In this document: positions 8,000-54,518 of the stretch, piece after piece
Numbering within the stretch: position 1 is the first letter of the stretch
Layout of the letters: each line of letters opens with the position of its first letter
Origin: Scolanthus callimorphus
Taxonomy: Eukaryota; Cnidaria; Anthozoa; Actiniaria; Edwardsiidae
DNA length: 64,000 nucleotides
Assembly: GCA_033964015.1 (NCBI GenBank)
Contig: CM066913.1
Coordinates: 12,456,953-12,520,952 of the forward strand
Direction of reading: 5' to 3'
The notes under the pieces: generated by a model
What the model was told of the DNA's origin: nothing
The model's database searches: none
Seen by the model: only the letters and a program-made list of their open reading frames with translations
Translations under genes and position numbers: made by a program

Positions 8000-8929
8000 T
8001 TAACCCTATCCAGACTGGGGGGGGGGCTTTTCGAGCCCCCCCTCCAGTAAAATCCTGATTACTCTAAAACCACTGCAGCTATGATGGTGAAACTTCGTGA
8101 CTTTTCCTAAAATTTATCTGGGGACATTTTGGTGTCAATGACATGTCAGTGTCAACGACCCAGTTTCCATGGCAACCACATTTTGACATGCATGTTTTGC
8201 AAAACTCGAAAAAACGTGAATTTTTCATATTTCAAGCTTAATGTTGGACAGATTGCCCAATTTATGACTATCGGAGCTTGTACTCCTTAGTAATTTATGT
8301 ACAGGCTAATTAATTTTTGTCACAAAATCTTTGGGGGGGGAGGGGTAGGGGGATTTTGTTCATTTTAACATATGGTCTAAAACTAGCTCTGGGATTCACA
8401 AGTTTCCTTTTAATTCAACTTTTTGAATGTCAAACACTTCTTTGATGAGTATTTTGTACATTTTGACCATTTTTTTCTCATTGAGTATTTATCTGAAGAG
8501 TCAAATGGAAATTAAATGAAATCCAAGATGGCGGATCCAAGATGGCGGATCCAAGATGGCGGACAATATTTTCAAAAGTCGTCATTATGACACAAGTTTA
8601 ATAAAATTTATGTGTTAATGTCACAAATTATTACATTTACATTATCTTGATGTTAATTAGTTGGCTTTTAGAGTATTATCTACCAAGTTTTTGGAAGTTA
8701 ATTAAAATTACTTAAAAATTGATAAAACATTGAGAATGACGTCATTGTGACGTCACATTTTGCTCCCACGTGACAAAAATAGGTGTGGTGATTTGTCTAA
8801 GGCTCATGGTCATTGTGTGAAAGTTTGATGATCATAGCCCCAGTGGTTCCAGAGATATAGAGGGGGGGCCGAATTAGCCCCCCCCCCAGTCACAGATGGT
8901 CAAAAAAAGCCCAGTCTGGATAGGGTTAA
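8000..8929. mobile_element. TTAA-flanked non-autonomous DNA transposon, copy 2
   Basis: Direct-orientation copy of 5799-6731 with TTAA at 8000-8003 and 8926-8929. The left end here is CCCTATCCAGACTGGG, a perfect match to the inverted right end. It differs from copy 1 by scattered point changes and homopolymer lengths. High identity suggests recent activity of the family. Confidence 0.87.
8524..8562 (+). promoter_or_regulatory. Three tandem YY1-like motifs, second copy
   Basis: Same CAAGATGGCGG triple as at 6326-6364, inside the second TTAA element. Confidence 0.4.
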
Positions 8930-15523: not shown

Positions 15524-16364
15524 CAATGTAAAAAAAATGTGTTTAACACCAGACTTCTGGTAAACAGACTTTTAAAGAGATGTAAGTCTCCAAGCAAGAC
15601 TTGCTAAGAACTTATGGAGCCCGGGTGTGGTAAATAGAAGCACCTTATATTCCTGGAAAGTCTTGTAATGCTCATGTAATATACTTAGTTGGATACAGAG
15701 GGTCTGTACTTAAAAGCAGGTAGTCATCTCTCCATAATCATGTGTTTCTTGTGCTTGTTCTTTTTGTACATTGTAGTTGTGTGTGCAGTACCTACTGACA
15801 GCCAAGTCACAGGCTGGATCTAAGGCTTAGTCCCCTTCTTTTCTGGGCAAAATATTTTTGGCTTTGCTGTTCTCAATCAGATTATTGCCTATTGTTTCAC
15901 TTAATGCAGTCGCCTCCTGTTGCAACATTTGTCTGGTTTTTGTTGAGAGGGAAGTGGGAGGAAAATAAATTGATGTTTTGAAAAACGATTTAGCTGTATC
16001 GTCACCCCATTTTTGTTGCATGTCAGGCACCATTTGTACTAGTCAATCCCCTTATCAAAGACTGTTGTTATCACCAGATGTCATGTGATTTGCAGCCCAT
16101 TAGGATATCAAAAACAATTCTCTAAAAGAAGTCAGTAAGATTAGGAAAAGGTAGAAAAATATTTTTTACAATGTGTTAATCACATTTTAGTATTTGCATT
16201 TCAGTATAAAAGCTTAAATAAGATTTTTATCCCTTATGGAATGAATGTCAAATGTGGTGAAATAAAGCGCGGCTATGATATACTTGTTTGTGGTTGTGTA
16301 CTACTGAGAAGCACTAGCCTCGTCCCAAGACGTCTTCTTACCCTGTTATAATATACCTTTAAGC

Positions 16365-16480
16365 CTGGTTTCCATATAGTCTTATCTGTCGCATCAGTCG
16401 ACCGTGAAACAATGGAATTTGAACTTATTCTTTTGTTTCACGGTCGACTGATGAGACAGATAAGACTATATGGAAACCAG
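16365..16480. mobile_element. 116-bp hairpin MITE, copy 1
   Basis: CTGGTTTCCATATAGTCTTA at the left is answered by its inverted complement at the right; nearly the whole element folds on itself around a short loop. An equal-length copy is at 30427-30542. Confidence 0.85.
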
Positions 16481-18475: not shown

Positions 18476-18904
18476 CAGAATCTATTTAATATAAGTTCTT
18501 GCCTTAAGTCCAGTTCGTGGAAAGAAAACCTTCGATCCTAGCCGATTTCAATCTCGTTCCCAGACTGCCTCCTCCGCTTGTTTGTTGTCGTAGGCTCTGG
18601 AGGCAGACGATTTGGGCCGAATTTGATTGGTTCTCAGAATTGCCTGCGTAATGAGTTAAAATTTTGCATGGGCGTTGCGCAGCGAGTTGGTTTCCGGTTA
18701 GATCTCATTTCTTCCGGTGTAAACAAACCCTACACGTGGACGAAAACTTTATTCCGAGAACAATTATCACCAAAACTAATAGACTGAGTAACGAATTTGG
18801 GCTTTTGACTCCTTTATAAACCTAAGCGAGGGATAAATGAAATCAAAGCAATGTGACCGAAGAGAAACGGTACAAAACGTGGCTATAAATATCGTCGAGT
18901 AAAA

Positions 18905-21900
18905 ATGCAGTGGACGAACAGATTGATTAAAATGGGAATGAAATTTGTCGAGACGTATTGTTCTTTCTGTCTATTATGGAAGGCTATGATGGCGGATAAT
19001 ATCACTCCAAAAAAGCTAGTCGAGGAAGTGTTCAACAATGACACTTGTATCGCTTGCAATGCAGTAATACCGGCAAAAAACCACCCTATTCCGCTAAACA
19101 AGGCTCTACGTTCTAAACTTGGATCTTATGTCGGTAAATCTCTTAAAAATAGTGCAGAAGAAGGTTATCCAACAAAGATATGTTGCCCTTGTAATCGCAC
19201 CTTGAACAACTGTGAAACTTTTCGCAAAAAGGTTCAGAAAGCGCATGAGTTTCAGACCACCCTGATCAAAACATCGCGGTACAAGAGAGGGCGCACTGTA
19301 ACAAACATTACACCTCCAACAAAGCGTCCCAACAAAGAGAGTGTTAATTCACGCGCAAAAAGTGCTAGCGCTATAGCTCTTGCTGCTCTACACGGCACCT
19401 CCAACGAACCTGTATGTGAACGGTTATCTAATGAAATGGCTACGTATCAGAAACGTATAGAGACTTCCAGTGTTCCTGTTCCTCAATTCGAAGAGTATAG
19501 TGTTCGTGCCCCTCCCCACAGTCTGCCTGTAACTCAGTTGCCAACACCCTCCCAAGAAGCTACTGTGCTGAGATGCACACACAGTCCACCTGAACCTCAA
19601 GTGCAAAATCCATCTCTACAGTCTACTGTTCGGGCAGCTTCCTGCCCACATTTATCTGTTCTTCCTGGAAACATGCCCCTGAAAGATGCATCAGCTTCCT
19701 ACAGTCTACCTCAAGGGCCCACACCCTCCCAGGAAAGGCCTGCTGTTCATGCACCTCCAAAAAGCCTACTATACACCTCCACACCCTCCAAAGAAAGGGC
19801 TACAGTTCGGTCATGCTCACAGAGTCTACCTATTCCTATACTCCCTAAGCCAGCCCCTACAAGTGCACCTGCTGAGCTTCAAACAACGCCCACCCAAGGA
19901 GTGGCAGTTGCAAAGCATGTTTTTTGTACATCTGGAGTTAGAGGCAAGGAGGTAAACATATCAACAGGGTTTCCAATCCCTATTTGCAATTAAAAATATG
20001 CCCACTTTTCTTTACAATAATAGATAAAAATAATATTGAAAATAATTAATATAATATAATGTTATCTCTAACCACAAGGCTGTATGCAGGGGGAGGGTAA
20101 GGGGGCAGAATAGACCTCCTCAAATACAATATTTGCACATGAAAATTTCAAATTTCAAATCATGCTGTTTACAAGATGAAAAATCACTTGTCTTATTGAC
20201 ATCATTTTTCACATGATAAAAAAATCACGATTTGAAATGGACATTGTATGTAAACAGCCTTAGAAGAAGCTAGTATTCCCTCCCATGCAATAAGGATAAC
20301 TGGAGGCATACCCAGAGAAAAAATATATATTTTGCAGCCCTGAATTAATAAAAAAATATCCTGTCAATTCCTCAACTTTGACCATCATTCTGATTTGCCT
20401 GGCTGTTCAAGGGAAGCAGGGGTAATAACCAAACTAGATAATAATGTGTGGTTCCAGATACATATGGATTGGAAATTCCAGAGCGGTGGGGTGGGCATCA
20501 ATTTGCATGCTTTTTATATAAATGCTGCAATTTTCCTTTGGAAATTCTGAAGGGTTTGGAGGGGGGTAAGGGGGTTGGGGGCACTTTTCAATACCTTTCC
20601 TTGAGGGGGATGGATATTTTTTCTGGAACCACACAATATAAGCAACGTACCTATAATGCGCAATCAATCTGTCTACATTCACAGTTTCAAGAAATTGACA
20701 ACAAACCTGTAGATTCAACAGCACTTAAGAAGATCTGTGAGACATGCAAGACAAATCCAAAGCCAACAAAGCTAGCAGACACAATTGTTGCCATACCACA
20801 ACTGAATGCAGCAATAAAAAAGAACTACCTGTGTCAAATTGATAGCCAATGCAAGGAACTTTGCAAAAGGTCTCAAGACAAAGTATCTATCCTTAGGGCT
20901 GGTGGTGCTTCTTTTAATAGCTTGGTAAAATTCAGGTGGGCAAGTATCCTAGAAGAGCTTAAAGAGAAGGCACCATTTGCCTACCATGTTCTTGTTGCTA
21001 TTGATATTCCAAACGCACCAAAGAGTTTCACAGCAGGTGAAAGGATGAGTGTACCCCTATGCACAGCATGGGCGGTTCTAATGAACTTGAGAAATGAGCA
21101 GCTGAGTCTGGTCCAGAAACTGATAGCTGTTGCAATTGGCATTGGAGGATGTACCACCAAGGTATGACTTTTACACATGACTAAGCAATTTCCAAGTGTA
21201 CTTTTGCATTCTATATCTTCTGGTTGCAGCTAAAAAAAAAAAAAACAGGAAAAAATGCGTAAAAACATTAATGGTTTTGGTAGCGTTTTTCCATTAATGT
21301 ACATAAAACATTAATGGAAAAGTGTGGTCTTCCCATTAACATTTTTCACACATTAATGGAAACACGCTACTTAATGTTTTTACACAATTTTTTTTTCCTG
21401 TGAAAACCTAGCACCATCAAGCTAAGAGTATGGGCTAACTTGCATTTTGTTACATTTTGTTAGTTCAGACCATCAACCACACCCAGTACAATATGAGACC
21501 CCTCCCCCATAAACCACCAGCTGAAATGCTTACTAATCTCTGCCACCACTTGAAAGAAATACTCATTTACCCTTTTGTATATGCATTTTGATTTACAGAC
21601 TTTTCAGAGGCTTAACAGCCTAAAGATCTCACAATCCCATGACTCATGGTTACGGATACTTACCGACATGGGTGACAACCTTGTTGGGACAATTAAGGGT
21701 CACATCACCAAGACAGTTCAACCTAGAATCACCTGGGACAACTTTGACTTCAGGTAAGACCAGGGGTGTACCCAGGGGTTACAGAAACCCCTATTCTTAG
21801 CTGACACAATATTTTAAAATCAATCATTCATTTCAATCTCTGGTCTGTTGAATACATTTCAAAAGAATATGTTTGTCATTTGCCAAAAAATATATGTATG

Positions 21901-23057
21901 ACCAGACTTATTTAGTGTTCCTCCTGAAATTTATGGGTATGGGTAGGGACAGGGAAAAAGCAAAGTGGAACCTCCCTTCAAAAAATCCTGGTTATGCCCC
22001 TGAAAACCAAGTAAAACTATCTAATACTCAGACGGGATATACCAATACTAGAGGGTTTGTCCTTTTTTGTTTTGTCATAATATTAGCCATAGGCCATATT
22101 AGCCACACCCAAGCTAGCCTCCCCCAAAGTGTGCAATAATTCATTTCATTTATTTTCTCTAGGATCTCTGTGACCCTGCAACAGAAAGGTGTCAGAAATC
22201 TTGACCACCACTGGATATGCCAGTTTCTCACCTTTGATCGAGTGCAGAGCAGTCATTTAGATAACACCAAGGCTATTGGTAACCTGAAGGACTTTGAGTT
22301 GATAAATTATCTATTAACTCTAGACGAACAAAAGAAAATGAGGTCTGAGGTCATGGTGCTAGTTGCAAGGATACTTCTTGCTCATTTCCCCTGGCTACAG
22401 GTGATTTCCTGCTGTGTCCCAAAGCATATAAAGCACCAATACTCTGAGGAAATGAGCAAGAAATCTTCTATTATTGGTTTACCTATAGTACCACATAGCC
22501 AGGTGAAACACGCTGAGGTCATTAAATATCTCGATGGGCTGCAGGATCTCATTGCCAAGATCTATGACAAGGATCAGAGTGCAACCTCCCTTCCTACCAT
22601 GACACTAGGTGGTGATCTGCTTGGAAGAGAGAGGGCTACAGGAGCTAAACGGTTGAGAAGAGGATGTGATGAGGAGAGAGAAAAATACTCTAACATCAAG
22701 GAAGTAGCAGAGTATTGGCATGGAAAGCAGGCATTCTTAGGGGTATGTTAATCAATTTGTAATTGTTTTGAACAAAAAGCTTTCTATCATAAAACACATG
22801 GCCCTAACTTTGCTTGTTGTGTGTGTGGAGGTGGGGGTCAATTTACCTGATTTTTCCATAAAAATGTTTGAAATTCCAATGTATGGTTCCAAAAAATATC
22901 AATACCCCCTCCACGGAAGGGTGTTGAGAAATGACCCCTCCACCCCTCTGGAATTTCCAAAAAAATACAGTATTTGTATGGAAAAGATCAGGTAAATTGA
23001 ACCCCCACCCCTCCGGAGGGGTATGGATACTTTCTGGAACCACACAATGGAGTGTGT

Positions 23058-23088
<31 letters not shown>

Positions 23089-26000
23089 GGGTCTTAAGTG
23101 CATTCGCTCCATGGTGGGGGTGTGGACTGGAATTGCACATTACAACAAAATGGTTATTTGTGTCCATGATACTTAGTTGATGTTCTTCTCTTACTTTGCT
23201 TCATACTTTCAGCTGACATGGGAAAAGCTCTACTCCCCTTCCTCAGGAAGAGACATTGGAACCCTGTTCTACTTCCGTAATTCACTAGGGAGGAGGAACG
23301 TTAAAACAACTGTGAAAAACTGTTATGCACCTGCAGAAAACCTTTTTCTGCAGGTAGTGACAGGCTACATTGTTGTAGCATTCATGGAGTATGCAGGAAT
23401 AGAAGAGATGAAGCAAGAGCCTAAAGATCTACTACCATTACCTCATGCGAATGCCAGCAAGAAAGTTAAGCAAGTATACTTTGACAAGGTTATTGGGCGG
23501 TTTGTAGACCAATTCTGTTTACTTGAGGCTGACATTGAGCGTGCCATCAGAGAGCAGCATCTACAAGCCCGTGCTCAAGCTAAAGAAGCCACTGTAGCTC
23601 CACAAAACAGGGATAATATGATGCAGCAAAACTCTGAGGCAAGCCCAAGTGCAAACGCACAGGTAATGATTAGGCTTTACTTTGATTAGAGCTATATCTT
23701 ATTTCAACAGACTGTTTTGGCAATAAGTAATGAAAACATGAATGGGCAATTTCCATACACACATGAAGAGATTTACTGTACTCAATAGGTAATTATTGGC
23801 ACTGACTGGTACCACATACACCCCTAACGATGTGACAGCACCTCTAAGGTAACCCCTCTCCCCCCTTGATTTATATCAATAACACCACCTAAAGACTCAA
23901 TCCAGAAACCCTGATAAGAGCTCATAATGGGCTGTTACAAAAACCCTTGGAGGAACTCCAAATTTTCAATAATTGCTCTACCCCTGTGGAAATTCCAGAC
24001 TCCTGTACAACCCCTGTGAAAATTTGAAGCAACCCCTGTGGAAATTTCTTATTCTCTTCTGGGTCTGTGGAAATTCCACAGTTTGCAAAGGAATACGCTG
24101 TGGAAATTCCAGGGTCAAAATCAACAAACCCTGTGGAATTTCCAGGTTTCTCAAAAGGGGGTACATTTTTTTTTGGAACAGCCCAAATCACCCATCACCC
24201 CTCATTTGTGGGTGCAACACTTGGAAATTCGATATGATATCATATAAAGAAAAGCATATACTGTATAGTCAAGCTGAAAACACTTCCAAACCAATATTAG
24301 TTTAATTAGCTGGGGAATCATTGTTATATGAAAGTCTTCATTATTGAATTATTATAAAATATGTATTTTTACACATCTTATTGTGTATCTTTTTTCTGGG
24401 GGTGTTTTTAAAAATTGCAGCCTGTCCTATTGCAGCCACAGCCTACTGCACAGCAATCAACAACTGCAGCAAATAAGCCAGTAGCACCACTACAAACTCA
24501 GGTATTGAAAGCTAACAAATGGTGTCTTGAGCACGTTTGGTAATAACAACGACTAATAATGGTGCTGATTTTGTTATTATAGCCAGTCCTATTGCAGCCA
24601 CAGCCTTCTGCATCACACTCAACAACTGCAGCAAATAAGCCAGCAGCACCAATGCAAATAACTCAGGTATTGAAAGCTACCACAGTCTTTAGCATACCTT
24701 AAAATACAAGTCTTAGCAATGATAATAATACTGATACACTGTAATGGTGCTCATGTTATAATCATATAGCCAAACACTTGTTGTTGGTAATATTATTGAT
24801 AAAAATCTTCTTTTGCAGCCATTGATATTGTTTCAACATCCTTCTACCCCAATGCCACAGCATACTTCTGCAGCACAGCCAACTGCAGCAGGAAGCCAGG
24901 TTTGTAATAATTGGTGTGTTGTTATCACACAAATAGGTTTGAGTGGCAGTAATTACTGTATGACGTTACAACATTTTCACTTCCCTAGAATCAGCCTGTT
25001 GTCTTAGTGATGCGACAGCCTGCCCATCAGAACTTAGCTCAGCCTGGAGGCTATAATGCAAGCTGTCAGCAGCCACCAGGAGCAGTACTGTTCAAACAAC
25101 TGGTAAATTTGTAATGCAGTCTTGCATATAAATACTGTGATTTTAGTAGAACAAACAGCATAATCAAACCAATGGTGACACCATAAAATAACAATTTAAT
25201 TATTTGTAACTGAGTGTGTGATTTTGTACATGTATTTTATAAAATGCATGAAGTATGAACGTCCTCAGTCAAGTTATGCAGTAAAGCATTCTCATGTTTA
25301 CCAAACTCAGGTAAATTTGTGAAATATTTTCTTATCAATAAACCCATAACATGGGGTGAAGAGCTTTGGGGTTCTGTTCTGTTCTGGGACACCACACACA
25401 TGTATTATTTTCTAAAGTTATGAACCCCTTTCAAAAAATCCTGGTTACACCCTTGATAACTAAAATTTATTGGGGAGCCTATTTGTGCTTGTGGCGCTTA
25501 TTCTATATTATTATAATTATATAGTGACTTTGTTTCTGGTGTTTTTAGCAATTGCAGCCTGTCCTATTTCAGCCACAGCCTACTGCACAGCAATCAACAA
25601 CTGCAGCAAATAAGCCAGTAGCATCACTACAAACTCAGGTATTGAAAGCTAACCTCCATGTTTTGAGCAAACAAGTTGCTAATTGTAGTGCTGATTATAT
25701 TTATAGCCAATCCTACTGCGGCCACAGCCAACTGCACAACAATCAACAACTGCAGGAAATAGGCCAGTCGCACCACTACAAACTCAGGTATTGAAAGCTA
25801 ACAAGCTCTGTCTTGAGCTAGTTTGGTAAAACTACTAAAAATAGTAATAACTTTATATTATAGCCAATCCTATTGCGGCTACAGCCAACTGCACAACAAT
25901 CAACAACTGCAGGAAATAGGCCAGTCGCACCACTACAAACTCAGGTATTGAAAGCTAACAAGCTCTGTCTTGAGCTAGTTTGGTAAAACTACTAAAAATA

Positions 26001-27266
26001 GTAATAACTTTATATTATAGCCAATCCTATTGCGGCTACAGCCAACTGCACAACAATCAACAACTGCAGGAAATGGGCCAGTAGCACTGGCAACTCCAAC
26101 TCACTACCAACTACCAACTCAGGTAATGAAAGCTGAAGCTACTGTAATAGCCTCTGTTTTGAGCAAGTTTACTAATAACTTACTATTGAAATAATAATGG
26201 TGATGATTTTTATTATAGCAAATCCTTTTGAGGTCACAGCCTACTGCACAACAACCAACAACTGCAGTAAATAGGCCAGTAGCACAACTACCAACTCAGG
26301 TATTGAATGTTAACCTGTTTTTGCCCATCAAAAGGGAGTTTGAAATAATATCACTGATAGATTACATGATGTGATCCATTGCAACCAATAATCCTCTTTC
26401 AGGGGCCCATTCAGCAGCCATTGTCAAACAGCCATGCTAGTGGTGTAACCCCTAATCAGACTGGAAATTCAACAATTCTCCCAAGCAGCAAAGAAAATGG
26501 AGGATCATCTGAGGGATCAGGATCATCAGAGGAGGATCATCTGAGGAATTATGGGCTTTGGGTGATACGCCTTGGACTAGTTCTGCTACAACTGAATGAT
26601 ACAGAAAAGGAAGGAGATGGAGAGAGGGCAATACGCAATGCCAAACTGCTAATGCTACTATTCAGGTCCTGTATCCACAGCAAGAAGTATGCTTTTGAGT
26701 TTTTCAGATTAATCACTAATGTACGTTGTTTGTACACCCCTCAACTTGCTCACAGAGTAATTCATGGCAGGTTTGTCAACTGGAAAGGAGGAGAGGGCAA
26801 CAACTGTGCCAATGACCTTAAACAGGAGCATCTAGTGAAATTCAACAAGAAATTGTTGCGAGGGATGGGTGCTCAGAAAACTGAAAAAGCCGTCCATAGA
26901 GCAACTGCTGCTGCCTGTGGTCTCAAAAAGGTGGTAGAAAATATGGATAAAGTGACTCTGATACCACCTGACTCTACATCACACACATACAGGAGAGCTG
27001 ATGAAGACCAGTTGGAAATCATCAATGAACTTATACAACTAAAACCTTTTCAGCGGGTACCTGGCAGGCGCCACAATCACTTTCCTAATATTCCAAATAG
27101 CCCACTAGACCTTGTTGATATTATGCTGTTGGAAAGATGGATGAAAAAGCATAGGAGGAAGTTTGCACAAGACCCTGACTTGGTACGAGAAGAAGAGGAT
27201 GAAGACAACACAGAAGATGAAAGTGATGACGAATGGGAAACTATTGAATCAGATAGTGAAGTCTAG
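18905..27266 (+). CDS. DUF6589-like protein, candidate transposase (15 exons, 1455 aa)
   Basis: Coding exons: 18905-19951, 20685-21161, 21599-21753, 22163-22742, 23213-23662, 24421-24501, 24583-24666, 24819-24899, 24989-25102, 25549-25638, 25707-25787, 25864-25944, 26021-26122, 26219-26299, 26403-27266. All junctions are GT-AG and phases agree. Residues 15-110 hold a cysteine-rich, ZAD-like zinc module (CSFC, CIAC, CCPC). Residues 130-349 are Pro/Ser-rich. Residues ~509-900 include WDNFDF (554-559). Residues 904-1168 are Gln/Pro/Thr repeats from duplicated exons. The C-terminus (1215-1400) has GDGER (1239-1243), VNWKGGEGNN and NDLKQEH, resembling DUF6589, and ends in an acidic tail. Because it fills a transposon with clean ends, I infer it is the transposase; D555, D1240 and E1310 are candidate catalytic acids. 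A TATA-like tataaat lies ~20 bp before the ATG. Confidence 0.85.
20445..20635. mobile_element. 191-bp MITE with TGTGTGGTTCC ends, in intron 1
   Basis: Ends TGTGTGGTTCCAGATA and TTTTCTGGAACCACACA are inverted repeats. Internal phrases ggaaattcc recur. Related copies are at 22880-23046, 33664-33855 and, truncated by the window edge, from ~63950. Confidence 0.75.
21246..21400. mobile_element. 155-bp AT-rich hairpin element in intron 2
   Basis: CAGGAAAAAATGCGTAAAAA at the left is matched inverted by TTTTTACACAATTTTTTTTT plus CCTG at the right. CATTAATGG is repeated several times inside. Non-coding MITE. Confidence 0.65.
21761..22002. mobile_element. 242-bp hAT-like MITE in intron 3
   Basis: Starts CAGGGGTGTACCCAGGGG and ends CCTGGTTATGCCCCTG. 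Flanks are aagac (left) and aaaac (right), a 4/5 match to a 5-bp duplication. Same family as 15004-15152 and 53962-54262. A right-end remnant of the family is at ~25425-25460 in intron 9. Confidence 0.65.
22880..23046. mobile_element. 167-bp MITE with TGTGTGGTTCC ends, in intron 4
   Basis: Begins TGTATGGTTCC and ends GGAACCACACA; carries the same internal ggaatttcc and cccctcc phrases as 20445-20635. A (TG)n plus G-run microsatellite follows at 23053-23091. Confidence 0.7.
23928..24185. mobile_element. 258-bp MITE made of CTGTGGAAATTCC repeats, in intron 5
   Basis: TGGGCTGTTACAAAAA at the left and TTTTTTTTGGAACAGCCCA at the right are inverted. Between them about eight degenerate copies of CCCTGTGGAAATTCCA stand in tandem. 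Non-coding. Confidence 0.65.
24421..26299 (+). repeat. Tandemly duplicated exon array within the DUF6589-like gene
   Basis: Exons 6-14 include six units of 81 nt, one of 84, one of 90 and one of 102 plus a divergent 114-nt exon, all phase 0. Most start CCNGTCCTATTGCAGCC or CCAATCCTATTGCGG and end CTACAAACTCAG before GTATTGAAAGC. Introns between exons 11, 12 and 13 are almost identical (spacing 157 bp), showing the newest duplications. Each unit adds ~27 Gln/Pro/Thr-rich residues. Confidence 0.9.
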
Positions 27267-27530
27267 GATCAAGAGAGCACTTAATTGTCCTTAAAATAAT
27301 GATTTCACTGTATCTATCAACAAATTTGTTTAGCTCATGGTCCATTTTCCACATGTTGCAGCTGTTGCCTCAAAGGTTTAGTCCCTATGACCAAATTGTT
27401 GGTCACATTGGCAACCAGATGGCTATAATTTCAAGCTCTCCCTTAAAAATAATGATCTATTATCTAAACAGATTTTGAGCTCATTTGAAATCATCAACAT
27501 AAGAATAGGGTTTGATGCTCTTGCTCCAAT

Positions 27531-27960
27531 AGGCCTTTATCACACAATATTGATTAATACTACATGAACGGAAAATTTTAGTTTCAATTCTACACATCCA
27601 TAGTAGTAAAACAGCAAAGTTTTAAAATAACTAGTTGAAAACTGGCTGAGATATGAATTTTTAAAAATTTGTATTCTGACTCATTTTTTTACAAAGAAAT
27701 GTATGGGAAAATATGTTAAGTCGAGACTGGATGGGCCATCAATGCCCGTCCAGCCTCGTTTCAATTTATTTTCCCATACATTTCTTTGTAAAAAAAAAAG
27801 CCAGAATACAAAGGTTTGGAAATCCATACCTCAGCCAGTATTAAAGCAATCTTCACTAAACTTTGCAATTTTTACTAATATGGATGTGTAGAATTGAAAA
27901 CTGGATTCCATTTTATGATAGCTATTATATATTATTATCAGTATTGCATTATAAAGGCCT
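27531..27960. repeat. 430-bp long palindrome between the two convergent genes
   Basis: AGGCCTTTAT at the left end is mirrored by ATAAAGGCCT at the right. Nested inverted matches include the tacacatccat/atggatgtgta pair and a stem at about 27690-27790 built on ACAAAGAAATGTATGGGAAA and its complement. It fills most of the space between the stop of the DUF6589-like gene (27266) and the stop of the helicase (28051). It is either a MITE or a shared 3'-end structure. Confidence 0.7.
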
Positions 27961-28050
27961 ATATTCTATTGCTACAGTCTACAAGGAACTAAAAATAAAT
28001 GTTATCCATGGCATAAAGTGGCAGTGACTGCCACTTTATCTTTATCCACT

Positions 28051-31000
28051 TTATAACTGTTTCTCTGTATTTGCCAGATAGAGAGACTTGCATCTTTGTA
28101 TAAGTGCCCAGATATTGTTCAGATTGGCTGTACAAAATACTGGTATTCTCTGTTCAAGGTCATGCAGACTATGAATGCTGTCTAGATGACAGACAATGTT
28201 ACTGATTACTTCCTCACTGAGGCCTGTGGTGAGGGTGATGCCCACAAAACTTTGCCTGTCAGCCACTTGTAATCTGTAACCCTGAAGGGCCTCTCTTACA
28301 GTATCCCTCACTGATTCAGGTATAGCAACTGGTTCATTCTCAACACGTTCATGAGGATTACCTAAGTCGATTTTGGCAATTGCAGCATCAAGTTCTTTCT
28401 CATCACTGCACACAACACAACAGCAGTTCCTAGAACAATTGTCACAACAATTGTGTCTGTCCTGGGAATCAGGGACAGAAGCATCAAAATGCCTAAGAAG
28501 GGCTTCTCTTCGACATTTGTCAGTAGTGACATATGACCGCATACTATCTTGTAGAGAAGGTCTGCCTTTGCTAATATCATAGGAGTTGTAGTATACAATG
28601 GACTGAGCCTGCTGTCCATCCCTACCTGCCCTACCAGTTTCTTGGAAAAACTCTTCTAGAGAACAAGGGACACCAACATGAATTATTCTGTCAACGTTTG
28701 GGCAGTCCACTCCAACACCAAAAGCAATTGTAACAAGCAATACTCTAGCTTTGCAGGTGCCATCAATTAAGGCTGACATCAATTGGGTCTTATACTTTTT
28801 AGGATATTCTGCATGGTATTGTGCAAATAGTCTGTTCTTGAAAAGAGGTTCTGATCCACATGGATAATACTGCTTAGAGCCTAAAGCTTGTTCAAATAAA
28901 CAGAAACATTCCCCACAGGTCTTTAAATCACTGAACACTATTGTTAAAGGCATGTTTATAAGTTTTTCTTTCAGTTCTTCTGCAAGTGGGTTGATCACAG
29001 CAGACACCCGGTCATCTGTGTTGGGTCGCCTTTCGGCTGAGTAGTAAATATTTGCCCGGTTTGGATTTTCCTTTAAAACTACAGGATCATTCAGCCCAAC
29101 TGACTCAATTATCTGCCTCTGGTATGTCTTGTTAGCAGTTGCAGTAAGAGCAACAAATGTTTTTCCAGGAAGCAAGGTTCCCAATACATTAAGGTTGGCA
29201 TAAGCTGGCCTGAAATGCTTCCTAAAACAATGCAAAATAATGCATGAAAGTCAGTTAAGTAAGTAATACTATTGTGTAAGTTTATGAGTATTAATTTATT
29301 AAGCATTGTTATGAGTTTTGATACTACAAAATACTGCCATCTGTGACAAAGCATGCAGTTTGTAACTTGAAGTTTTGTTGTTTTAGTATTGGTTTCTGGC
29401 ATGCTTATTAAATGCTTGACTGTTACTCTACTGTAGCCATCAGCATACAAAGAAAGAGTAGTCATCATAAAGTACAATGTTGAACACTTCATCACAATTA
29501 GTATCTATACGTAATGTTGAGCCCTGATATGGAATATTTCAATTAACTTTGCAAAAATAAATGTTTAAATTGTTTTGCAAATTGGATGTGGCAACGTGCT
29601 ACATAACTTTTCTCAATTTTCATTTCAGTGAACAGGTCCCATTTCTGGGAAAAGCATGAAATTTCTACAGTTAAAAGTAGGAAAATTATAGCACCTCCCA
29701 GGAATGGCCAGTGGCATCTTTTTCTGGCAATGGGAACTGTTCAAAATTTCCAAAGTGGAACAATGTTAGTTTTACCCATGCCTACAATGGGAAATGTAGT
29801 TTTTTCATGTCTTGAATGACGCATAGCTTATGTTTTTTTTTTTCCTGTGCTACAGTAGCTCTGCCACCAGATAACTGTTTATCCATTCTCTATTAACAAA
29901 GATACACGATAAGACAGATAAAACCTGCTAAAAGCATTTGAACACATCTTCTGAAGACTTTATTGGCAAAATAGAGCACTTGTGATGTTCGGAGTGACAC
30001 TAGAAACATGTTAAGAAGTAATCAATCAGCAGTTTGAGTATGCAGTTGACAAAAATCTTGTACGAAGATAAGCTGCATTGCATTGCAAATGTCTGTGGGA
30101 CTGTTTTCAATATGTTGCAAAAAGAAATCATTTCTAATAACAGGAAACACTGACAACAAATTTTGCTGTTCTTACAAAAACACAGGACTGACACTGACAA
30201 CAAAAATAATTTCCTGTGCATGCACTATTTGTTTCAACTTTGAAATTTATATTTACAGGCTCAAATGGGTTGTTATTTGTGGGGGTACATGTACTTTATA
30301 ATGAGTAACACTTATAGCTACTAGAAATTTATGTAAACAGAATTTTTAATATCCCTAATGTTAATCTGGTATAAAAATTTTGTCCACCAAAGCCTGAAAT
30401 TTTCTCGATCTCCAAATCCATTAAGCCTGGTTTCCATATAGTCTTATCTGTCGCATCAGTCAACCGTGAAACAAAATAATAATTCCGATTTCCATTGTTT
30501 CACGGTCGACTGATGAGACAGATCAGACTATATGGAAACCAGCCTTTATGCACATGGATGTGATTTTACAACGTTCGTGTGACTGATGGGTCCCAACATC
30601 ACGCCTGCTCTTTTTGCCGACTAAGTCATATAAAATTGTGCGCTAATAAAGGAATCAGTTTCTTACCATTCCACAACAAAATGAGCCTCATCAATTACCA
30701 CAGCCATAACTCTTCGTTGATATATTTTACTTTTCAATAATCTACGAACGTCTGTGTTTTCCACAAGTACTTCAGGATGGGCAAACAATAATGAAAATCC
30801 TGGATTACGCAGTTCGTTATCTCTCAAGTCCTCTGTATTTTTAAGCACTGTGCATTTGATTCCCTTGGAATTAAGCTTACTTATCTGGTCTTCGATCAAT
30901 GCATTCAATGGAGAGACAACAATTACAATAGGGTTTGGACACTGACCTAAAGACGCGAACACGAAAGGCAGAATTTGGTAGATTACTGACTTCCCATATC

Positions 31001-31139
31001 CAGTCGGCAAAATACAAAAGCAATCTCTGTTATCAACGGCTACAGCACGTATCGCTTCTTTTTGTTTTGGTTTTAAATCGAACTTTAAACCCAGTTGTGT
31101 AGCTCCAAATTTCAGCGCTTCTTGAAATCGATCCGCCAT
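28051..31139 (-). CDS. RecQ-type DNA helicase encoded by the transposon (two exons, 547 aa)
   Basis: Exons on the minus strand are 31139-30667 and 29221-28051, joined across a GT-AG intron within a Trp codon. Visible motifs: a Q-motif-like KPKQKEAI (~23-30), Walker A LPTGYGKS (44-51), DEAH box (150-153) followed by the RecQ-typical EWGKHFRPAY, then FVALTATA, the motif VI QETGRAGRDG (~351-360) and a RecQ-type zinc cluster with Cys at about 394, 416, 417 and 420. No HRDC domain is present, so it is short relative to host RecQ proteins. Such helicases unwind 3'-5' and could process transposition intermediates. It converges on the DUF6589-like gene and lies wholly inside the terminal repeats, so I read it as transposon cargo or machinery rather than a host gene. 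The intron carries the 30427 MITE. Confidence 0.92.
30427..30542. mobile_element. 116-bp hairpin MITE, copy 2, in the helicase intron
   Basis: Same length and stem as 16365-16480 (CTGGTTTCCATATAGTCTTA ... inverted), with a different loop. Confidence 0.85.
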
Positions 31140-31300
31140 CTTGAACAGAAAATTACAAGCATGCGCAGTACTTCGAAATCCTAGATTCTAGGACATCACA
31201 GTAATGCGCATGCTCCAATTTCGTCTGCGTCCAGAGCCTCCGAGGCAGCATGACCGAGAGGCTCTGGGAACGAGATTGAGCCGATTTAAAACCTTGAAAC

Positions 31301-33571: not shown

Positions 33572-33663
33572 ACGAGTGAGTGCAGGGAATGACTGAGAGA
33601 TTGAGATTGAACACAAGAAGGTAAAATTCGTATCTCCAAGTGCCCATGTAATGTTTTGTTTAT

Positions 33664-33855
33664 TGTGTGGTTCCAGAAATTATCCATACCCCCCTACAGA
33701 AGGGCATTGGAAATTCTGGAGGGGTGGGGATCAATTTACCTGATCATTTCCATACAAATACTGTATTTTTCCTTGGAAATTCCAGAGGGGTGGGCGAATC
33801 ACTTTCCAACACCCTTCTGTGTGGAGGGGGTATGGATATTTTCTGGAACCACACA
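33664..33855. mobile_element. 192-bp MITE with TGTGTGGTTCC ends and TTAT on both sides
   Basis: Begins TGTGTGGTTCCAGAAA and ends TTTTCTGGAACCACACA; TTAT flanks both ends. Fourth member of the family seen at 20445 and 22880. Confidence 0.75.
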
Positions 33856-34345
33856 TTATATAGATATTGATGAGATAAATTTGAAAACAAATGCAAAGCA
33901 TTGGTGTTAAAACCGAATCGACAGACCGGCAAACCACTTTTGGCACTGAAACTCTATAAGCAAAGTTTGATGTAAGCTTAATGAATTTTGTACCCTGGTC
34001 CCAGGGTGAAGTTTCTGTGTGTTTTCAATCCAAGTTTGAAGTCATATTTCACTGTAGTTTGTTTTGCTTCAGTATTTCTTGCTGGGACATCACATACCCT
34101 GGGGACACTCACTAGGATTCTCAGTTCTATCAATCAAAAACGTCAGTCCCAAAGGCAGAGCTTCGGGGCCTCCTATCATTGGATGGTGAATTTAGTGCCT
34201 TCTCATTGGCAGCAGGATTAGTTCCGGATTGAACAAAATCGTGTTACTCACAGGGAAGGGAGATTAAACCAGGGCTCTGTCGTCCAACAAAATTCACCAG
34301 GGCTCTTGAGAGTTCGCAAAATTAACACTTATTGGATAAGGTTGA

Positions 34346-36636: not shown

Positions 36637-39600
36637 AGTTGATCTTATTCTAACCAATAAAAGCGAAAATATATCAAAATCGGGCGTTGTTCCGTTAGGA
36701 ATGTCCGATGGACATGGTATGGTTTTTTGGGAGTCGGAAGTTTATACTGCCGAAGCGTCAGCCTGTCGAAAAAGAATTCAGAAACTTTAAAAATTTCGTA
36801 GCAGAGGAATTTATTTCAGACCTCGAAAACGCCCCTTGGGATTCGATACATGGTGACCAAGACCCAGATAGTGCCTGGGATAATTGGAAATCCATATTTA
36901 ATAATATAATTGATAAACATGCACCCATTCAGAACAGAAGGGTGAGAGAAAATTCTCTCCCTTGGCTCTCATCTCAAATAAAACAATTAATGAGAAATAG
37001 GGACTACTATAAAAACGCGCCATTAAATTTAACTCTGACTCACAATGGGAACTATTCAAAAGGTGTCGCAACCAAGTCAACATAGAAATGCGCAAAGCTA
37101 AGGCAAATTATTATCAGGAGAAAATTAAGAACTGCTCCTCGCGCGATCCAAAAAAATCATGGAAGCTAATTAATAATTTACTTGGTAAGCACCTTAAGGT
37201 ACTAGAGGAGGCTCATGATCGAAATTTCAATTCTCCCCAGAATCACCCAACCTGATGCTGGTGATACTATTTATCATATAGGGTAGTTTAAAACTTTGAA
37301 ATTTCACGAATACCTACAAAAATCGAGAGAGAAATGCAACGTTTTTCGCGCCAAATATTGTAATGTTATACCTTGTAGTATCCTGCCCGAGTATTTATCT
37401 GGTATTGTTGCAGTGACCCTTGACCTACTGTTAGTCATTAACTGGACACAGAATTCGGCTTTTATATGCGAGAAAGTACTTTATTTTTGTTCATAGAGGT
37501 TTTAATCATTTGTAGCAACGAAATAATTTCCAGAGGATACTTATTTTCCTCTCCTAATGTTAAAAACAATGAAATATTATCAGTTGTTGTGTTGGTCAAG
37601 CCGGATCGCAATTCATTTCCAGTATTTAATCCCTGGTGGAGTCATACCGTGTGCATTGATCGATGAATCATTCCTGAGACATAAAAACATGTTTTTGGCA
37701 GCTTAAAAAACAGATTCTTACTTATTATAAAAAGCCAATGTTGTAAAATCCAAAATTTCGCAGCTATGCGGTTTGTTCTGAGCTTGTTTACGAGCGCGCG
37801 TGACTTCTGAAACTTGAGTGAAATTTAATCCGATTTACTTTGCTTAGTAGCGTGTACTTATTTTCGCGCGAAAAACATTGCTGTATAAGGGCAAAATATC
37901 CTTATTTGGGGGGAAATATTGAATACAAAAGACCGCTGACTGGTTAAAAATAACATACACAGACGCATCTTGCCAACTGAAGCGAACAAAGCCATAGAAT
38001 CGAAAATTCGTGAAGTAAGGAAGTTATTTCACTGTAATTAAGGCGCTTGAACACCGAAAATGATGAATAAGTGCGTGTAGATTTCAGCTCTGTCTCTGAA
38101 ACTTTCTGAAACGAAAATATAGTGCATTTAGAAGGATTTTGACCATGCCCGTATGGAAACTCATAATATTATTAATTCTGTTGCGTTTTGACTTTACTAA
38201 TCGGTAACCTATTAACTTATTAATTTTTTGCTACGGGCACGGTCAATTTTGTCCCTTTTTTAATGCAAAATAACCTGGTGCACTTAGTTTGGGTCTGTTG
38301 TTAAAAACGTGCGAGTTTTTAGATTTTTAGTGAAAATGTAGTGGTTACTATGGAGACCGATTCTCGCGAAACAGGGCGTGGTATCGGTATGCGCATTACA
38401 TCAAAACAAAGCTAAATGTTTAATAAAAACATGCTGAAATGCTGATTGGGTAAAACGAAATATAAAGCGAGATATAATTTTTCAAATTGTACCCTCGGGA
38501 GCCTCCTGTAGTACCTTAAGCCGAACCAGCATGTGAACGAGTTAAACGTTGGTGGCAGCGTGTTGTCGGAACCTGAAAATATTGCAGAGGCCTTTAATGA
38601 TTATTTTGTTAACATCGGGCCAAATTTAGCAAAAAAGTGCCCCGATCAACTTAACCGAGATAATTCGTATTTGGACTTTTGTGAATACAATACACAACAG
38701 TTCAGTTTCGAAGAAATCCCGGTTGAAAATGTGGTCTTATCTCTAAAATCTCTAAAAGCCTCTAAGGCTACAGGCTTAGACAAAATTCCCGCCAAATTGC
38801 TCAAAGTAGCTGCAGATATTATAGCTCCTTCTCTGACACAAATATTCAACCTCTCACTTTCTTCTCGAACCTTTATCACTGAATTTAAGCATGCAAGGGT
38901 AACGCCCATCTTTAAATCAGATGACCGCAAGCTACCCGAAAACTATCGACCAATCTCGATCCTACCAATAATCAGTAAAGTGTTTGAGAAAGAAGTGTTT
39001 AGACAACTTTATAGCTTTCTGATGGACCAATCATTGCTTTCCAAATTTCAGTCAGGCTTCCGGCCTAAACATTCTACACTTTCGGCACTGATACATATGT
39101 GCGATGATTGGTATCGTAACATGGACCAAGGGCATTTAACAGGCGTTGTGTTCCTTGACATTCGGAAGGCTTTCGATTCGATAAACCATTCAATTTTACT
39201 CGATAAGATGAACCGACTCGGCATTCGTGGCGGACAGTTAGAATGGTTCTCCTCGTACCTATCTGGCAGAACGCAACAATGCCAAGTAAATAATCATCTT
39301 TCCCCGCCTAAGCAAATTATATGCGGGGTGCCTCAAGGCTCAATTTTAGGTCCTTTATTATTCCTCTTATATATCAATGACCTCCCGAATTGTCTCGGAA
39401 CCACAACGCCATGTATATATGCAGATGACACTCAGATATTCGCAACCTCTCCGGACCCTGATGAGCTCACAGATAAGCTTAATCTGGACCTTGCGAACAT
39501 CTCAAAATGGTTATCATTGAATAAGTTACAATATCACACATCGAAAACAAAAGTAATGTTTATTGGTTCATCCTATAACATTAAACATAAGAGTAACGAT

Positions 39601-40441
39601 CTTCAGTCTTCTGTCTGTATTGATGGCAAAACGATTTCAAAAATCAAGGGTAAATTCACAGAAGTGCCTTGGCGTTGAAATTGATGAAAATTTGAAATTC
39701 GATAAGCACATTGAAAATGTGTGTAAAAAAGCCAGTGCAGGGATAGGCGCAATTCGACGTATTAAACCATTTGTCCCGGCCAGCTCGCTTGAGAGCGTCT
39801 ATAGATGTCTTGTTCAGCCTTATCTAGATTATTGCGCGCCAGTTTGGGATACCTGTGGAAAGACCCTCGCAGATAAACTCCAAAAGCTGCAGGCACGTGC
39901 AGCACGTGTAGTAACTGGCGCGAGGTATGAACAGAGGTCTGTAGACGTTCTCCGAGGGCTGGGATGGCAATCTTTGAATAAAAGGCAAATAAATCTAAAA
40001 TCGATTTTGATATATAAAATCTTAAACGATCAAAGTGCACCAACCTTACGAAATTTATTTCTCAAGACTGAAGATCGCCAAGATAGATATAACCTCCGAA
40101 GCAGGGATACAGACCTAGCACTCCCAAAACCTAAGACCAACTTCCTGAAACGCAGTTTCAGCTATAGTGGAGCAATGCTATGGAACAGTCTTAGTAAAGC
40201 GACCAAACAGGCTAATACATTAGCCTCTTTCAAGCGTTTGCTGAAAAGGGATGCCGAATGATGGTGCACTGTGCTTTCGGGGATTCTTAATAGTTCTATG
40301 TTTTAATTGTATTGTCTTTTTTATCTTTGTAACCTATGTACTCTTTTTTTGTCAACGCCCCATTTGGAAATCAGTGTGTGCACAATGCACCATTGAAATG
40401 GCCAGCGTTGTAAAATAAAGCTGTATGTATGTATGTATGTA
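36637..40441 (+). pseudogene. Non-LTR retrotransposon (CR1/L2/Jockey type), RT and C-terminal part, broken
   Basis: The protein runs from VDLILTNKSENIS through the reverse transcriptase at 38533-39678: LPENYRPISILP, QSGFRPKHST, LDIRKAFDSINH, GVPQGSILGPLLFLLYINDL and the catalytic YADDTQIF. A C-terminal domain follows in another frame (39660-40261) with KLQARAARVVTGARYEQRS and a YNLRSR motif. Frameshifts lie near 36725, 37065 and 39650, and a 1.3-kb TTAA element is inserted at 37194-38519. The 3' end is a short (TATG)n tail at about 40421-40441 after AAATAAAG, as in elements of this group. The 5' continuation is at 17690-18257. Confidence 0.9.
37194..38519. mobile_element. 1.3-kb TTAA-bounded element inside the retrotransposon
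   Basis: TTAA at 37194-37197 and 38516-38519. The ends are inverted: TTAAGGTACTAGAGGAGGCTC and GAGCCTCCTGTAGTACCTTAA-type. Reading the flanking retrotransposon across the insertion restores one frame (LLGKH before, NELNVGG after). No transposase is seen. The GGAGGCTCAT phrase also opens the TTAA element at 60383. Confidence 0.82.
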
Positions 40442-41332: not shown

Positions 41333-42004
41333 TAGTCCGTGGGCCAGGAGTCGAAACCCTCCCCCCCCTAGGGGAATTTTGCTAACACATATCATTCGAA
41401 AGCTTAGCCCGAGGGTAGTCCAAAATCGGTTGTTTGCACTTTTGAAGTGGAAGCGTTTAGAAGTTACGGCGCATTTTACATTTGAGCTTCAAAACCACAG
41501 GGTACCCACGTCGTGATGTTGCGAAATATACGAATAAAATACCTGTATTACATCAAAAACACTGTATATCACATATTTTGCATAATAGCAGCCTAAATGC
41601 ACTATTTTGCTAGGAAAGGTATTAATAAAAGCATTCAAAAGTAGGTTTTTCATTGAATATAAAGCACAGGGTACCCACGTCTCATACCTGTCAAAGCAGT
41701 CAGGAAAGTATTTGGCCCTACACGATTATCACGCGTTCCCTCTCCTAGATATACATAAAATAGAGTCTTAGCAGTAGCAAACGTATATTTGCGCCGTGAG
41801 GCATATCATGCCATCCATGTTTGTTCTTAGTTCTTGTTAATAGATGTATCGGAGCATTTTCGGGCTCTGGGGGTCGTTTCTCGAAACGCCCGAAAACTTT
41901 TCGGGCCCGATAAATTACCCGAAAAGCGTGCTGATGACAAACTTTGCGTTTCTCGAAACTCCCGAGTTTTTCGCGCCCGATAAAATTGCGTCATTTTTCG
42001 CCCC

Positions 42005-43283
42005 TTAAGGACGGTGCCCACAAAAACGAAGATTTTTTTCGCACTTAATGACTATGTGGTAATGAAAGGTAATGTGAGAGGCTATCTATTTCCGATAAAA
42101 AAAGATAGGGTACCCACGCAAGTTTTTGAGATAACCCATCCCCAACACCCAAAAAAATGCAGAATTATCGTTTTTTTAGAAATTACGAAAAAAAATACTT
42201 TTACTCGATAGTTTTATTTAAATTCTACTTTCGCTCGTAAAAGCAGCAGCTGTTATTACATTTGTTGGATTTCATAACAAATGTTTGTAAATTTCGGCTT
42301 TTAAAGGTATTTTAGGGGGTAAAATTTCTACAAAAGGTCCAAAATCTACCCTGACACCCGCTACTTTATGCGTTAAAAAACAGCCTCAGCATATTTTTCG
42401 CACGTTAAAAATTTGCAAATACGATGCGGAGGTTTTATATTTTCAAATGATGTAAAAAAATATAGGGGTAGCCACGCAATTTTCAGAAATAATCGTGCCT
42501 TTTAACAGCAGGTAGAATGGTAATGTGACACATCTGCGCACCCCTCCCCTGTGAGTAGAAATTGACATTCAAAATGGCGACTCTTTAAGCAAGAGGGGAA
42601 AAGTGGAAAAATAAAGGTAACTACGAGGTACATTGACTAAAAATCACTTTTATATTGATTTTAGATAAAGGTGTAGTATATTTGATTCCACAATTAATGA
42701 CAAGCAGGTCGAGTTTATTGAAAATAGCAAGGCCAACTTACGAAGTCGGGTTCTCTTTCAAACGATAACGACTTTTTTTTGTCATTTACAAAGCGATTCT
42801 TGGTCAAGCCCCGGGTCAAGCATTATTGAAATGAAACTGCACTTACGGCATATAACTTGAAGTGTAAATAAACATTAAGTTTTCTGATTCATTTGTTGTT
42901 ATTTTGCGTAAAGTCCGTAAAGATATCTAGACTTTTAGGTATCAAACCTACGGCTACTTTTACTCAGAGAACAATTACGATACTTTTAATAAATGTAAAC
43001 TTTTGTAGGTTATTTCCCCAATAAATTTCCAACTGAAGGTAATTTACAGAGAAAAACAAAGAAAAAAAGAAGAAAAAGGAGAAAAAAGAAAAAAATTCTA
43101 CGGCCGCGGGTGAGTTCCGAACCCGGGTACTTGCAGTGTCACTTGCAGTCCGTCTAGCGCCTTAGCCAACTGCGCCATCGACACTTATCTGTAAACATTA
43201 CTGATTAAAATGCTAGATATACAGAAATCCGTATAGAATGCGCGAGCAGGATGCGCAGTAACATTAATAGGCACCGTCCTTAA
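42005..43283. mobile_element. 1.3-kb TTAA-bounded element (innermost of three)
   Basis: TTAAGGACGGTGCC at the left and GGCACCGTCCTTAA at the right, TTAA at 42005-42008 and 43280-43283. No transposase. It contains a tRNA-like sequence near its right end. Confidence 0.72.
43103..43187 (-). pseudogene. tRNA-like sequence
   Basis: On the minus strand an A-box-like TGGCGCAGTTGGCTAAGGCG is followed ~50 bp later by a B-box-like GGTTCGGAACTC, with the spacing of a tRNA. The acceptor ends do not pair well, so this is a tRNA pseudogene or SINE head carried by the 42005 element, not a working tRNA. Confidence 0.5.
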
Positions 43284-53281: not shown

Positions 53282-53703
53282 AGGATATAGAAACAAAAAA
53301 CGTCTTTGTAGATGGAAGATATACCGAAGTAGAAAAAAGAATTCCGAAGTTTATCTTATTTGAAGTGGGTCAGAGCACTCCAAAAATGACCAGAACAGAC
53401 AGACAGACAGACAATTTCTAGCAAGAGCCCCCCCCCCCCCCCCCCCCCCACCCAAATTCCTGGCCGCGCCCCTGTCGTCGATAGTCGTCCAGTATCCACC
53501 ATGTTCAGTTGGAATTCCAGTCAATCGATAACTGACTCGCGCGCGTATTTCGAACAATATTTCTACGTTTTTAGAGCATTTTAACGATCAGAGGGCATTT
53601 TAACGGGACAGAATCACACACACACAAACAAAAGTAAAAACAGAGATCTGCGGTCGAGAAGACCCCTGACCACCGCCATTTTGAAAAACGACCGAGAAGA
53701 TCT

Positions 53704-53949
53704 CAACCTCGTCCCCAGGGTCTTCTCGGTCGTTTTTCAAAATGGCGGTTAGCTCAGAGAAGACCCTGGGGAGGCTGACTCACATGACCGTTTCGAAACA
53801 AAGGACAAACCCAGAAGCTCATAAGTAGTTCTGACAAACCTCATTCTCATGTCCTCAAACAATAGTCACGTGACTCAGCCTCCCCAGGGTCTTCTCTGAG
53901 CTAACCGCCATTTTGAAAAACGACCGAGAAGACCCTGGGGACGAGGTTG
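53704..53949. mobile_element. 246-bp MITE with CAACCTCGTCCCCAGG ends, 9-bp duplication
   Basis: CAACCTCGTCCCCAGG at the left, its inverse at the right, and arms continuing through CTTCTCGGTCG and TTTTTCAAAATGGCGG. Flanks are AGAAGATCT and AGAAGATCC (8/9). It is inserted in the arm of an older copy of the same family (53660-53703 and 53950-54280). Confidence 0.85.
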
Positions 53950-53961
53950 AGAAGATCCTGG

Positions 53962-54290: not shown

Positions 54291-54518
54291 CAACCTCGTC
54301 CCCAGGGTCTTCTCGGTCGTTTTTCAAAATGGCGGTTGACTCCAGAGAAGACCCTGGGCGGGGGGGGAGGCTGAGTCACGTGACTATTGTTTGAGGATAT
54401 GAGAACGAGGTTTGCCCTTTGTTTCGAAACGGTCATGTGACTCAGCCTCCCCCAGGGTCTTCTCTGGAGTCAACCGCCATTTTGAAAAACGACCGAGAAG
54501 ACCCTGGGAACGAGGTTG
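54291..54518. mobile_element. 228-bp MITE with CAACCTCG ends and perfect 9-bp duplication
   Basis: Same family as 53704-53949. CCCTGAAGC flanks both sides (54282-54290 and 54519-54527). The terminal ~28 bp closely match the right end of the 18549-31278 transposon, including CTCGGTC further in. Confidence 0.9.

What the first reader, a model, noticed from the sequence alone, without database searches (positions are those of the whole stretch)
18540..31287. Apparently intact 12.7-kb transposon pairing a DUF6589-like protein with a RecQ helicase
The sequence shows perfect 16-bp inverted ends and a perfect 9-bp duplication of AGCCGATTT around two convergent genes that both read open through all exons. 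The genes sit 356 bp and 124 bp from the ends, so both belong to the element. DUF6589-like proteins and stand-alone RecQ-like genes are common, poorly explained entries in cnidarian gene sets; this locus gives a physical frame for both as one mobile system. The 9-bp duplication excludes TTAA, TA and 8-bp superfamilies. I know of no named superfamily with this gene pair, though I cannot exclude that one has been described.
Basis: partly seen in the sequence, partly recalled or inferred. Interest (0 to 1): 0.92.

Follow-up and report, generated by a model that had tools for sequence, protein, structure and literature searches.

The report
AcademH-type DNA transposon with RecQ helicase
This is an apparently complete jumping gene that fits an already named type (AcademH): it carries its own moving enzyme and a DNA-unwinding enzyme, and its end sequence occurs more than a thousand times in the same genome.

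Summary
A 12,730-bp element (18549-31278) has perfect 16-bp inverted ends, a perfect 9-bp target duplication and two open convergent genes: a 15-exon, 1452-aa DUF6589 protein and a two-exon, 547-aa RecQ-type helicase. That fingerprint was tested in the window's own 597-Mb genome. The 16-bp end occurs 1,222 times, its reversed control 0 times. Of 74 inverted pairs under 3 kb at the first 100 places, 22 have exact 9-bp and 16 exact 10-bp duplications, none 5-8 or 11-14 bp; these are 21 and 8 distinct targets. Two miniatures with related ends lie in this window, and a decayed copy with the same end and helicase DNA lies elsewhere. Homology to published Academ transposases could not be tested, and full copies could not be counted. 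Verdict: new member of a known kind; the smaller novelties are the DUF6589 assignment and a tandem array of repeat exons.

The parts
18540..18548 (+). target site duplication, left copy (AGCCGATTT)
18549..18564 (+). left terminal inverted repeat, 16 bp
18588..18610 (+). left subterminal repeat, 91% complementary to 31221-31243
18905..27266 (+). DUF6589 (putative transposase) gene, 15 exons (18905-19951, 20685-21161, 21599-21753, 22163-22742, 23213-23662, 24421-24501, 24583-24666, 24819-24899, 24989-25102, 25558-25638, 25707-25787, 25864-25944, 26021-26122, 26219-26299, 26403-27266), 1452 aa
24421..26299 (+). tandem array of nine short phase-0 exons coding a P/Q/T-rich insert; seven belong to one repeat family, two 157-nt units 99% alike
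28051..31139 (-). RecQ-type helicase gene, exons 31139-30667 and 29221-28051, 547 aa; motifs PTGYGKS, DEAH, TATA, QETGRAGRDG
31221..31243 (-). right subterminal repeat
31263..31278 (-). right terminal inverted repeat, 16 bp
31279..31287 (+). target site duplication, right copy
53704..53949 (.). miniature element A, 246 bp, related ends CAACCTCGTCCCCAGG; flanks AGAAGATCT/AGAAGATCC (8 of 9)
54291..54518 (.). miniature element C, 228 bp, related ends; exact 9-bp duplication CCCTGAAGC

Best explanation
The locus is an autonomous, apparently intact cut-and-paste DNA transposon of the AcademH lineage of the Academ superfamily. The DUF6589 protein is its transposase. It most likely binds the ends through an N-terminal zinc finger (a zf-AD-like hit below Pfam's cut-off) and cuts and joins with a D-D-E site. 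The candidate triad is D555, D711 and E1264, one choice among several conserved acidic residues. Target strands are joined 9 or 10 bp apart, which leaves 9- or 10-bp duplications. The RecQ-type helicase unwinds DNA at the ends or clears the strand-transfer product. The same proteins, or close relatives of them, move short non-autonomous elements that keep only the ends. Shown: ends, duplication, open genes, the 9/10-bp spectrum of elements with the same ends, the genome-wide recurrence of the end, a decayed helicase-bearing copy. Inferred: catalysis, the triad, the helicase's role, movement of the miniatures by this element, present activity.
For: Perfect ends and duplication. Both genes open. 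DUF6589 at 1.6e-36 and RecQ family TIGR00614 above its cut-off. Published AcademH traits, helicase and 9- or 10-bp duplications (passage), and RecQ helicase in Academ (passage). 1,222 exact ends against 0 control matches. Of 74 pairs: 22 exact 9-bp, 16 exact 10-bp, one 4-bp, none of 5-8 or 11-14 bp; random-pairing control means 0.065 (9 bp), 0.455 (10 bp), 0.185 (4 bp). A 237-bp element with its own 9-bp duplication is 98% identical to the last 60 bp of this element (L048). L013 carries its right end (182 bp, 94%) and helicase DNA (334 bp, 90%). The helicase groups with helicases whose named members are cnidarian, mollusc and sponge, apart from 17 RecQ-type proteins, 13 of which carry the RQC domain PF09382.
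Against: Homology of this transposase to a published Academ transposase was not tested: the AcademH paper is not held and no Academ reference protein is on hand. Two structure predictions failed (mean pLDDT 36 and 39), so an RNase H fold is not shown. No second copy with the DUF6589 gene was seen: tblastn gave no transposase hit in 86 loci nor in three extended loci. Of 62 nearest-neighbour end pairs, 27 have no exact 9- or 10-bp duplication. The element is much longer than the mean of 5,565 bp given for curated bivalve Academ elements (passage of PMC10294476).
Confidence: 0.87

Rival explanations
1. A separate, unnamed superfamily that pairs a DUF6589 transposase with a RecQ helicase and only resembles AcademH in gene content and duplication length.
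For: Sequence kinship to Academ transposases was not testable; the held library has no paper with DUF6589 and one unrelated paper with PF20231 (listings).
Against: RecQ helicase, and duplications of both 9 and 10 bp but of no other length from 5 to 14 bp, agree with AcademH.
Confidence: 0.09
2. A Mutator-like or KolobokH element that acquired a helicase.
For: Mutator-like elements also make 9-bp duplications (recalled); KolobokH carries a RecQ helicase (PMC9587614 passages).
Against: No MULE or other transposase family matched the protein at E up to 1. KolobokH is reported only from fungi and Kolobok uses TTAA (recalled), whereas the 29 distinct 9- and 10-bp targets show no TTAA.
Confidence: 0.02
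3. The ends and duplication mark a real transposon, but one gene is cargo (for example a captured host RecQ).
For: Helicases are common host genes; only one copy with both genes was read.
Against: Four other loci with these ends hold related helicase pieces near an end: L012 (residue 1 at 120 bp inside), L027 and L028 (residue 23 at 157 bp inside an end with one mismatch) and L013. The helicase lies apart from 17 RecQ-type proteins in the tree.
Confidence: 0.04

Closest known systems
AcademH (Academ DNA transposons encoding helicase; Kojima 2020, Mob DNA 11:15; not held, seen only as cited in other papers)
   Same: Helicase in an Academ-type DNA transposon; 9- or 10-bp duplications (passage of PMC10045372)
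   Different: Nothing tested differs; transposase homology, gene orientation and length could not be compared because the paper is not held
Academ elements of bivalves (PMC10294476, passages)
   Same: Same superfamily on the best reading
   Different: Curated bivalve consensus elements average 5,565 bp; this one is 12,730 bp. The word helicase does not occur in that paper's main text
AcademX
   Same: Same superfamily on the best reading
   Different: 3- or 4-bp duplications and a nuclease instead of a helicase (passage); here 9/10 bp and no nuclease domain in the two proteins
KolobokH, and Kolobok-1_CCri with RecQ on the opposite strand
   Same: Transposase paired with RecQ helicase; Kolobok-1_CCri also has the helicase on the complementary strand (passage)
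   Different: TTAA duplications (recalled); KolobokH only in fungi
Mutator-like elements
   Same: Duplications around 9 bp (recalled)
   Different: No MULE transposase match

Membership tests
AcademH | encodes a helicase (RecQ type in Academ) | tested here: met
   Pfam DEAD, Helicase_C, RecQ_Zn_bind; TIGR00614 RecQ family 230.6 bits against a cut-off of 219.8
AcademH | target duplications of 9 or 10 bp | tested here: met
   9 bp at this locus; 22 exact 9-bp and 16 exact 10-bp among 74 pairs, none of 5-8 or 11-14 bp; 21 and 8 distinct targets
AcademH | terminal inverted repeats (general DNA-transposon feature) | tested here: met
   16-bp perfect ends, 1,222 genome matches
AcademH | DDD/E transposase homologous to Academ transposases | not testable with these tools
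   no Academ reference sequence held; AcademH paper not held; structure models failed
AcademX | 3- or 4-bp duplications and a nuclease gene | tested here: not met
   one 4-bp match among 74 pairs (control mean 0.185; 3 bp not counted in that survey); no nuclease match in the two proteins
KolobokH | TTAA duplication (recalled) | tested here: not met
   AGCCGATTT; list of distinct targets
Mutator-like (MuDR) | MULE transposase domain | tested here: not met
   no such Pfam match at E up to 1

The most novel reading that the evidence does not exclude
The DUF6589 transposase founds a separate superfamily that independently recruited a RecQ helicase. Within it the helicase, not the fixed geometry of the transposase alone, sets the stagger, which would explain why one set of ends gives both 9- and 10-bp duplications in one genome.
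Probability: 0.07. Interest if true: 0.6.

Novelty: new member of a known kind. Interest (0 to 1): 0.32.

Why it matters
It ties the Pfam family of unknown function DUF6589 to the likely transposase of a named transposon lineage. It also suggests that some of the RecQ-like genes labelled WRN-, BLM- or Q1-like in coral and mollusc gene sets are transposon genes. An intact-looking element whose 16-bp end occurs 1,222 times in one genome is a practical starting point for an assay of how a helicase takes part in cut-and-paste transposition.

Tried and rejected
Structure of the transposase: two AlphaFold2 jobs on alignments of 7 rows gave mean pLDDT 36 and 39; not used, and no fold search was made. 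Protein search with the whole 1452-aa transposase (region 380-890) scored 7993 candidates and found none; the 841-aa core found three relatives among 7859 candidates. Search of solved structures with the transposase alignment: none at E up to 1. Transposase relatives in viral contigs and genome contigs: none; two end patterns in viral contigs: none. No RNA family and no tRNA in the window. Looking in this window for a second copy of the empty site by joining the flanks: no match across the junction. A shifted-flank control was badly built (a 9-bp match reappears as 6 bp) and is replaced by the random-pairing control. In one search the group label RQC_present was set by rank (hit 77 or later), not by domain: P0079, P0084, P0087, P0089 and P0092 lack PF09382, and P0079 falls inside the other clade. 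The tree used 62 of the 120 listed helicase hits: of 87 with 400-1000 aa, the 44 ranked 74 or better and the first 18 of the rest. The duplication survey used 100 of 1,222 places and dropped pairs with more than 2 mismatches in an end, pairs of 3 kb or more, and pairs too near a locus edge.

Full report
What is in the sequence. The window holds a 12,730-bp element at 18549-31278. Its ends are a perfect 16-bp inverted repeat, and it is flanked by AGCCGATTT on both sides, the only two occurrences of that 9-mer in the window. No duplication length from 2 to 12 other than 9 fits exactly. In a scan of the window for exact inverted repeats of at least 12 bp with exact 8-11 bp flanking duplications, 6 structures appear. 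The five others all have palindromic 8-bp flanks, and 30 simulated windows gave none. A second, subterminal inverted repeat lies at 18588-18610 and 31221-31243.

Genes. On the + strand, 15 exons joined by 14 GT-AG introns read through 1452 codons to a stop at 27266. The product matches DUF6589 (E=1.6e-36) and, below Pfam's cut-off, a zf-AD zinc finger at its N-terminus. Exons 6-14 form an array of nine short phase-0 exons. Seven of them belong to one repeated unit, two successive 157-nt units are 99% alike, and together they code a P/Q/T-rich insert between the parts of DUF6589 in exons 4-5 and exon 15. Because every exon of the array begins and ends in phase 0, exon number can change without loss of frame. 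On the - strand, two exons code a 547-aa helicase with RecQ-type motifs and a RecQ zinc-binding stretch. It passes NCBI's cut-off for the RecQ family. Its best solved structure by sequence is 1oyw (E=3.9e-42), which I recall as E. coli RecQ. No RQC or HRDC domain was matched at E up to 1.

Relatives. The transposase core found three relatives in the large protein database: a sea anemone protein (Actinostola, 50% over 78% of the query) and two unnamed ones. All three carry DUF6589, and one also has the N-terminal zinc finger in weak form (E=0.05). The acidic residues D555 (in WDNFDF), D711 (in GGDLLGRER) and E1264 (in KYAFE) are kept in P0121 and P0122; the short protein P0123 lacks the first, has N at the second and keeps the third. 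Eight other acidic columns are identical in all four sequences, so this triad is a proposal by conservation and spacing alone. For the helicase, 4136 of 7997 scored candidates had E up to 0.001, and the best 120 were listed. The named ones among the best 74 are from corals, sea anemones, soft corals, a hydrozoan, molluscs and sponges, several labelled WRN-, BLM- or Q1-like. Two clusters stand for over a hundred sequences (P0016 125, P0019 186), which would suit a mobile gene. In a tree of 63 rows, 46 such rows are separated from 17 RecQ-type proteins by a branch with SH-aLRT 100 (quick method). None of the 46 carries the RQC domain PF09382, against 13 of the 17 (domains as listed; for the window's own protein).

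The same ends elsewhere in this genome. The window's own assembly (597 Mb, 302 contigs) holds 610 + 612 exact copies of the 16-bp end, against 0 for the reversed pattern. I took all 100 places that the answer listed (of 1,222) as 86 loci. They contain 74 distinct inverted pairs under 3 kb with at most 2 mismatches per end. Exact flanking duplications, sought from 4 to 14 bp, were 9 bp in 22, 10 bp in 16 and 4 bp in 1; there were none of 5-8 or 11-14 bp. Counting only the nearest partner of each left end, 62 pairs gave 20 with 9 bp, 15 with 10 bp and 27 with neither. Pairing flanks of different loci at random gave means of 0.065 (9 bp) and 0.455 (10 bp) per survey. Eight loci share AGGTCGATGC together with homologous outer flanks, so they look like one insertion copied with a larger repeat. 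When equal targets are counted once, 21 distinct 9-bp and 8 distinct 10-bp targets remain. Of the 38 elements with such duplications, 36 are 58-803 bp long and two are 1,690 and 2,044 bp. A group of 10 resembles this element over 50-85 bp of the ends, up to 98% over 60 bp (L030, L048); most of the rest share only about 19 bp with it. In this window two more miniatures, with related ends, sit at 53704-53949 and 54291-54518 with 8-of-9 and 9-of-9 duplications.

Gene-bearing copies. Among the 86 loci, tblastn found helicase pieces in four: L012 (residues 1-158 at 41-50%, residue 1 at 120 bp inside the end), L027 and L028 (residues 23-57, residue 23 at 157 bp inside an end with one mismatch) and L013 (residues 460-535 at 77%). 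L013 also shares 182 bp at its end (94%) and 334 bp inside (90%) with the window's element, so it is a decayed copy of the same family; no left end was found for it. No transposase match was found in the 86 loci nor in the three loci that I extended. The direct protein search of the genome did not complete (18 tries), so the number of full copies is unknown.

Comparison with what is known. I read passages, not whole papers. They say that RecQ helicase is among the accessory proteins of Academ (PMC3627910), and that AcademH makes 9- or 10-bp and AcademX 3- or 4-bp duplications, a difference that seems related to helicase against nuclease (PMC10045372). AcademH was described by Kojima in 2020 from animals and fungi (title as cited in PMC10799480), and Academ is among the DDD/E superfamilies (PMC9587614). 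The 2020 paper itself is not held. A coral genome paper lists Academ-1 among the DNA elements of three Caribbean corals (PMC12005156). A bivalve survey gives Academ elements a mean of 5,565 bp, far shorter than this one (PMC10294476). The element therefore meets every AcademH feature that I could test; the one that I could not test is direct homology of the transposases. The held library has no paper with the word DUF6589 and one, on optics by its title, with PF20231, so the link of this Pfam family to AcademH may be unprinted, at least in open papers.

How it most likely works. The transposase binds the 16-bp ends and perhaps the subterminal repeats, cuts the element out and joins it to target strands 9 or 10 bp apart; gap repair leaves the duplication. 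The helicase most likely opens the ends or dismantles the strand-transfer product. The first part follows from the family and the anatomy; the helicase's role is inference. The short elements probably depend on proteins supplied by full copies such as this one. Open genes and a perfect duplication suggest a fairly recent insertion, but activity was not shown.

Verdict. A well-preserved member of an already named lineage; not a new superfamily on this evidence.

Noticed in passing
window 53661-54287: A further one-ended copy of the miniature family: end at 54263-54278, with GACCCCTGA read by eye at 53661-53669 and 54279-54287, apparently carrying element A and another small repeat inside it.
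   Followed up: partly
window 48762-50039: 425-codon ORF with a P-loop and a weak match to the poxvirus A32 family (E=5e-4, below cut-off), perhaps from a Polinton-like insert; only described.
   Followed up: no
window 38512-40261: Reverse transcriptase ORF (RVT_1, E=2e-33), followed by an overlapping ORF in another frame from 39557, so probably with a frame break.
   Followed up: no
window 41333-45467 (arms 41333-41562 / 45239-45467): Inverted repeat with arms of 230 bp at 93%, spanning about 4.1 kb, with palindromic GGGTACCC within the arms: probably another DNA transposon.
   Followed up: no
window 60383-60943 and 63184-63745: Inverted repeat of about 560 bp at 94%, possibly another element.
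   Followed up: no
window 5799-6731 and 8000-8929: Direct repeat of 934 bp at 98% about 2.2 kb apart.
   Followed up: no
L001, L006, L014, L030, L047, L065, L068, L079: A miniature of this family sits at the same target (AGGTCGATGC) inside what looks like a larger dispersed repeat that has itself multiplied.
   Followed up: partly
window 30427-30546 and 16361-16480; 22878-23048 and 33662-33857: Introns of the element contain small repeats also found outside it in the window.
   Followed up: no
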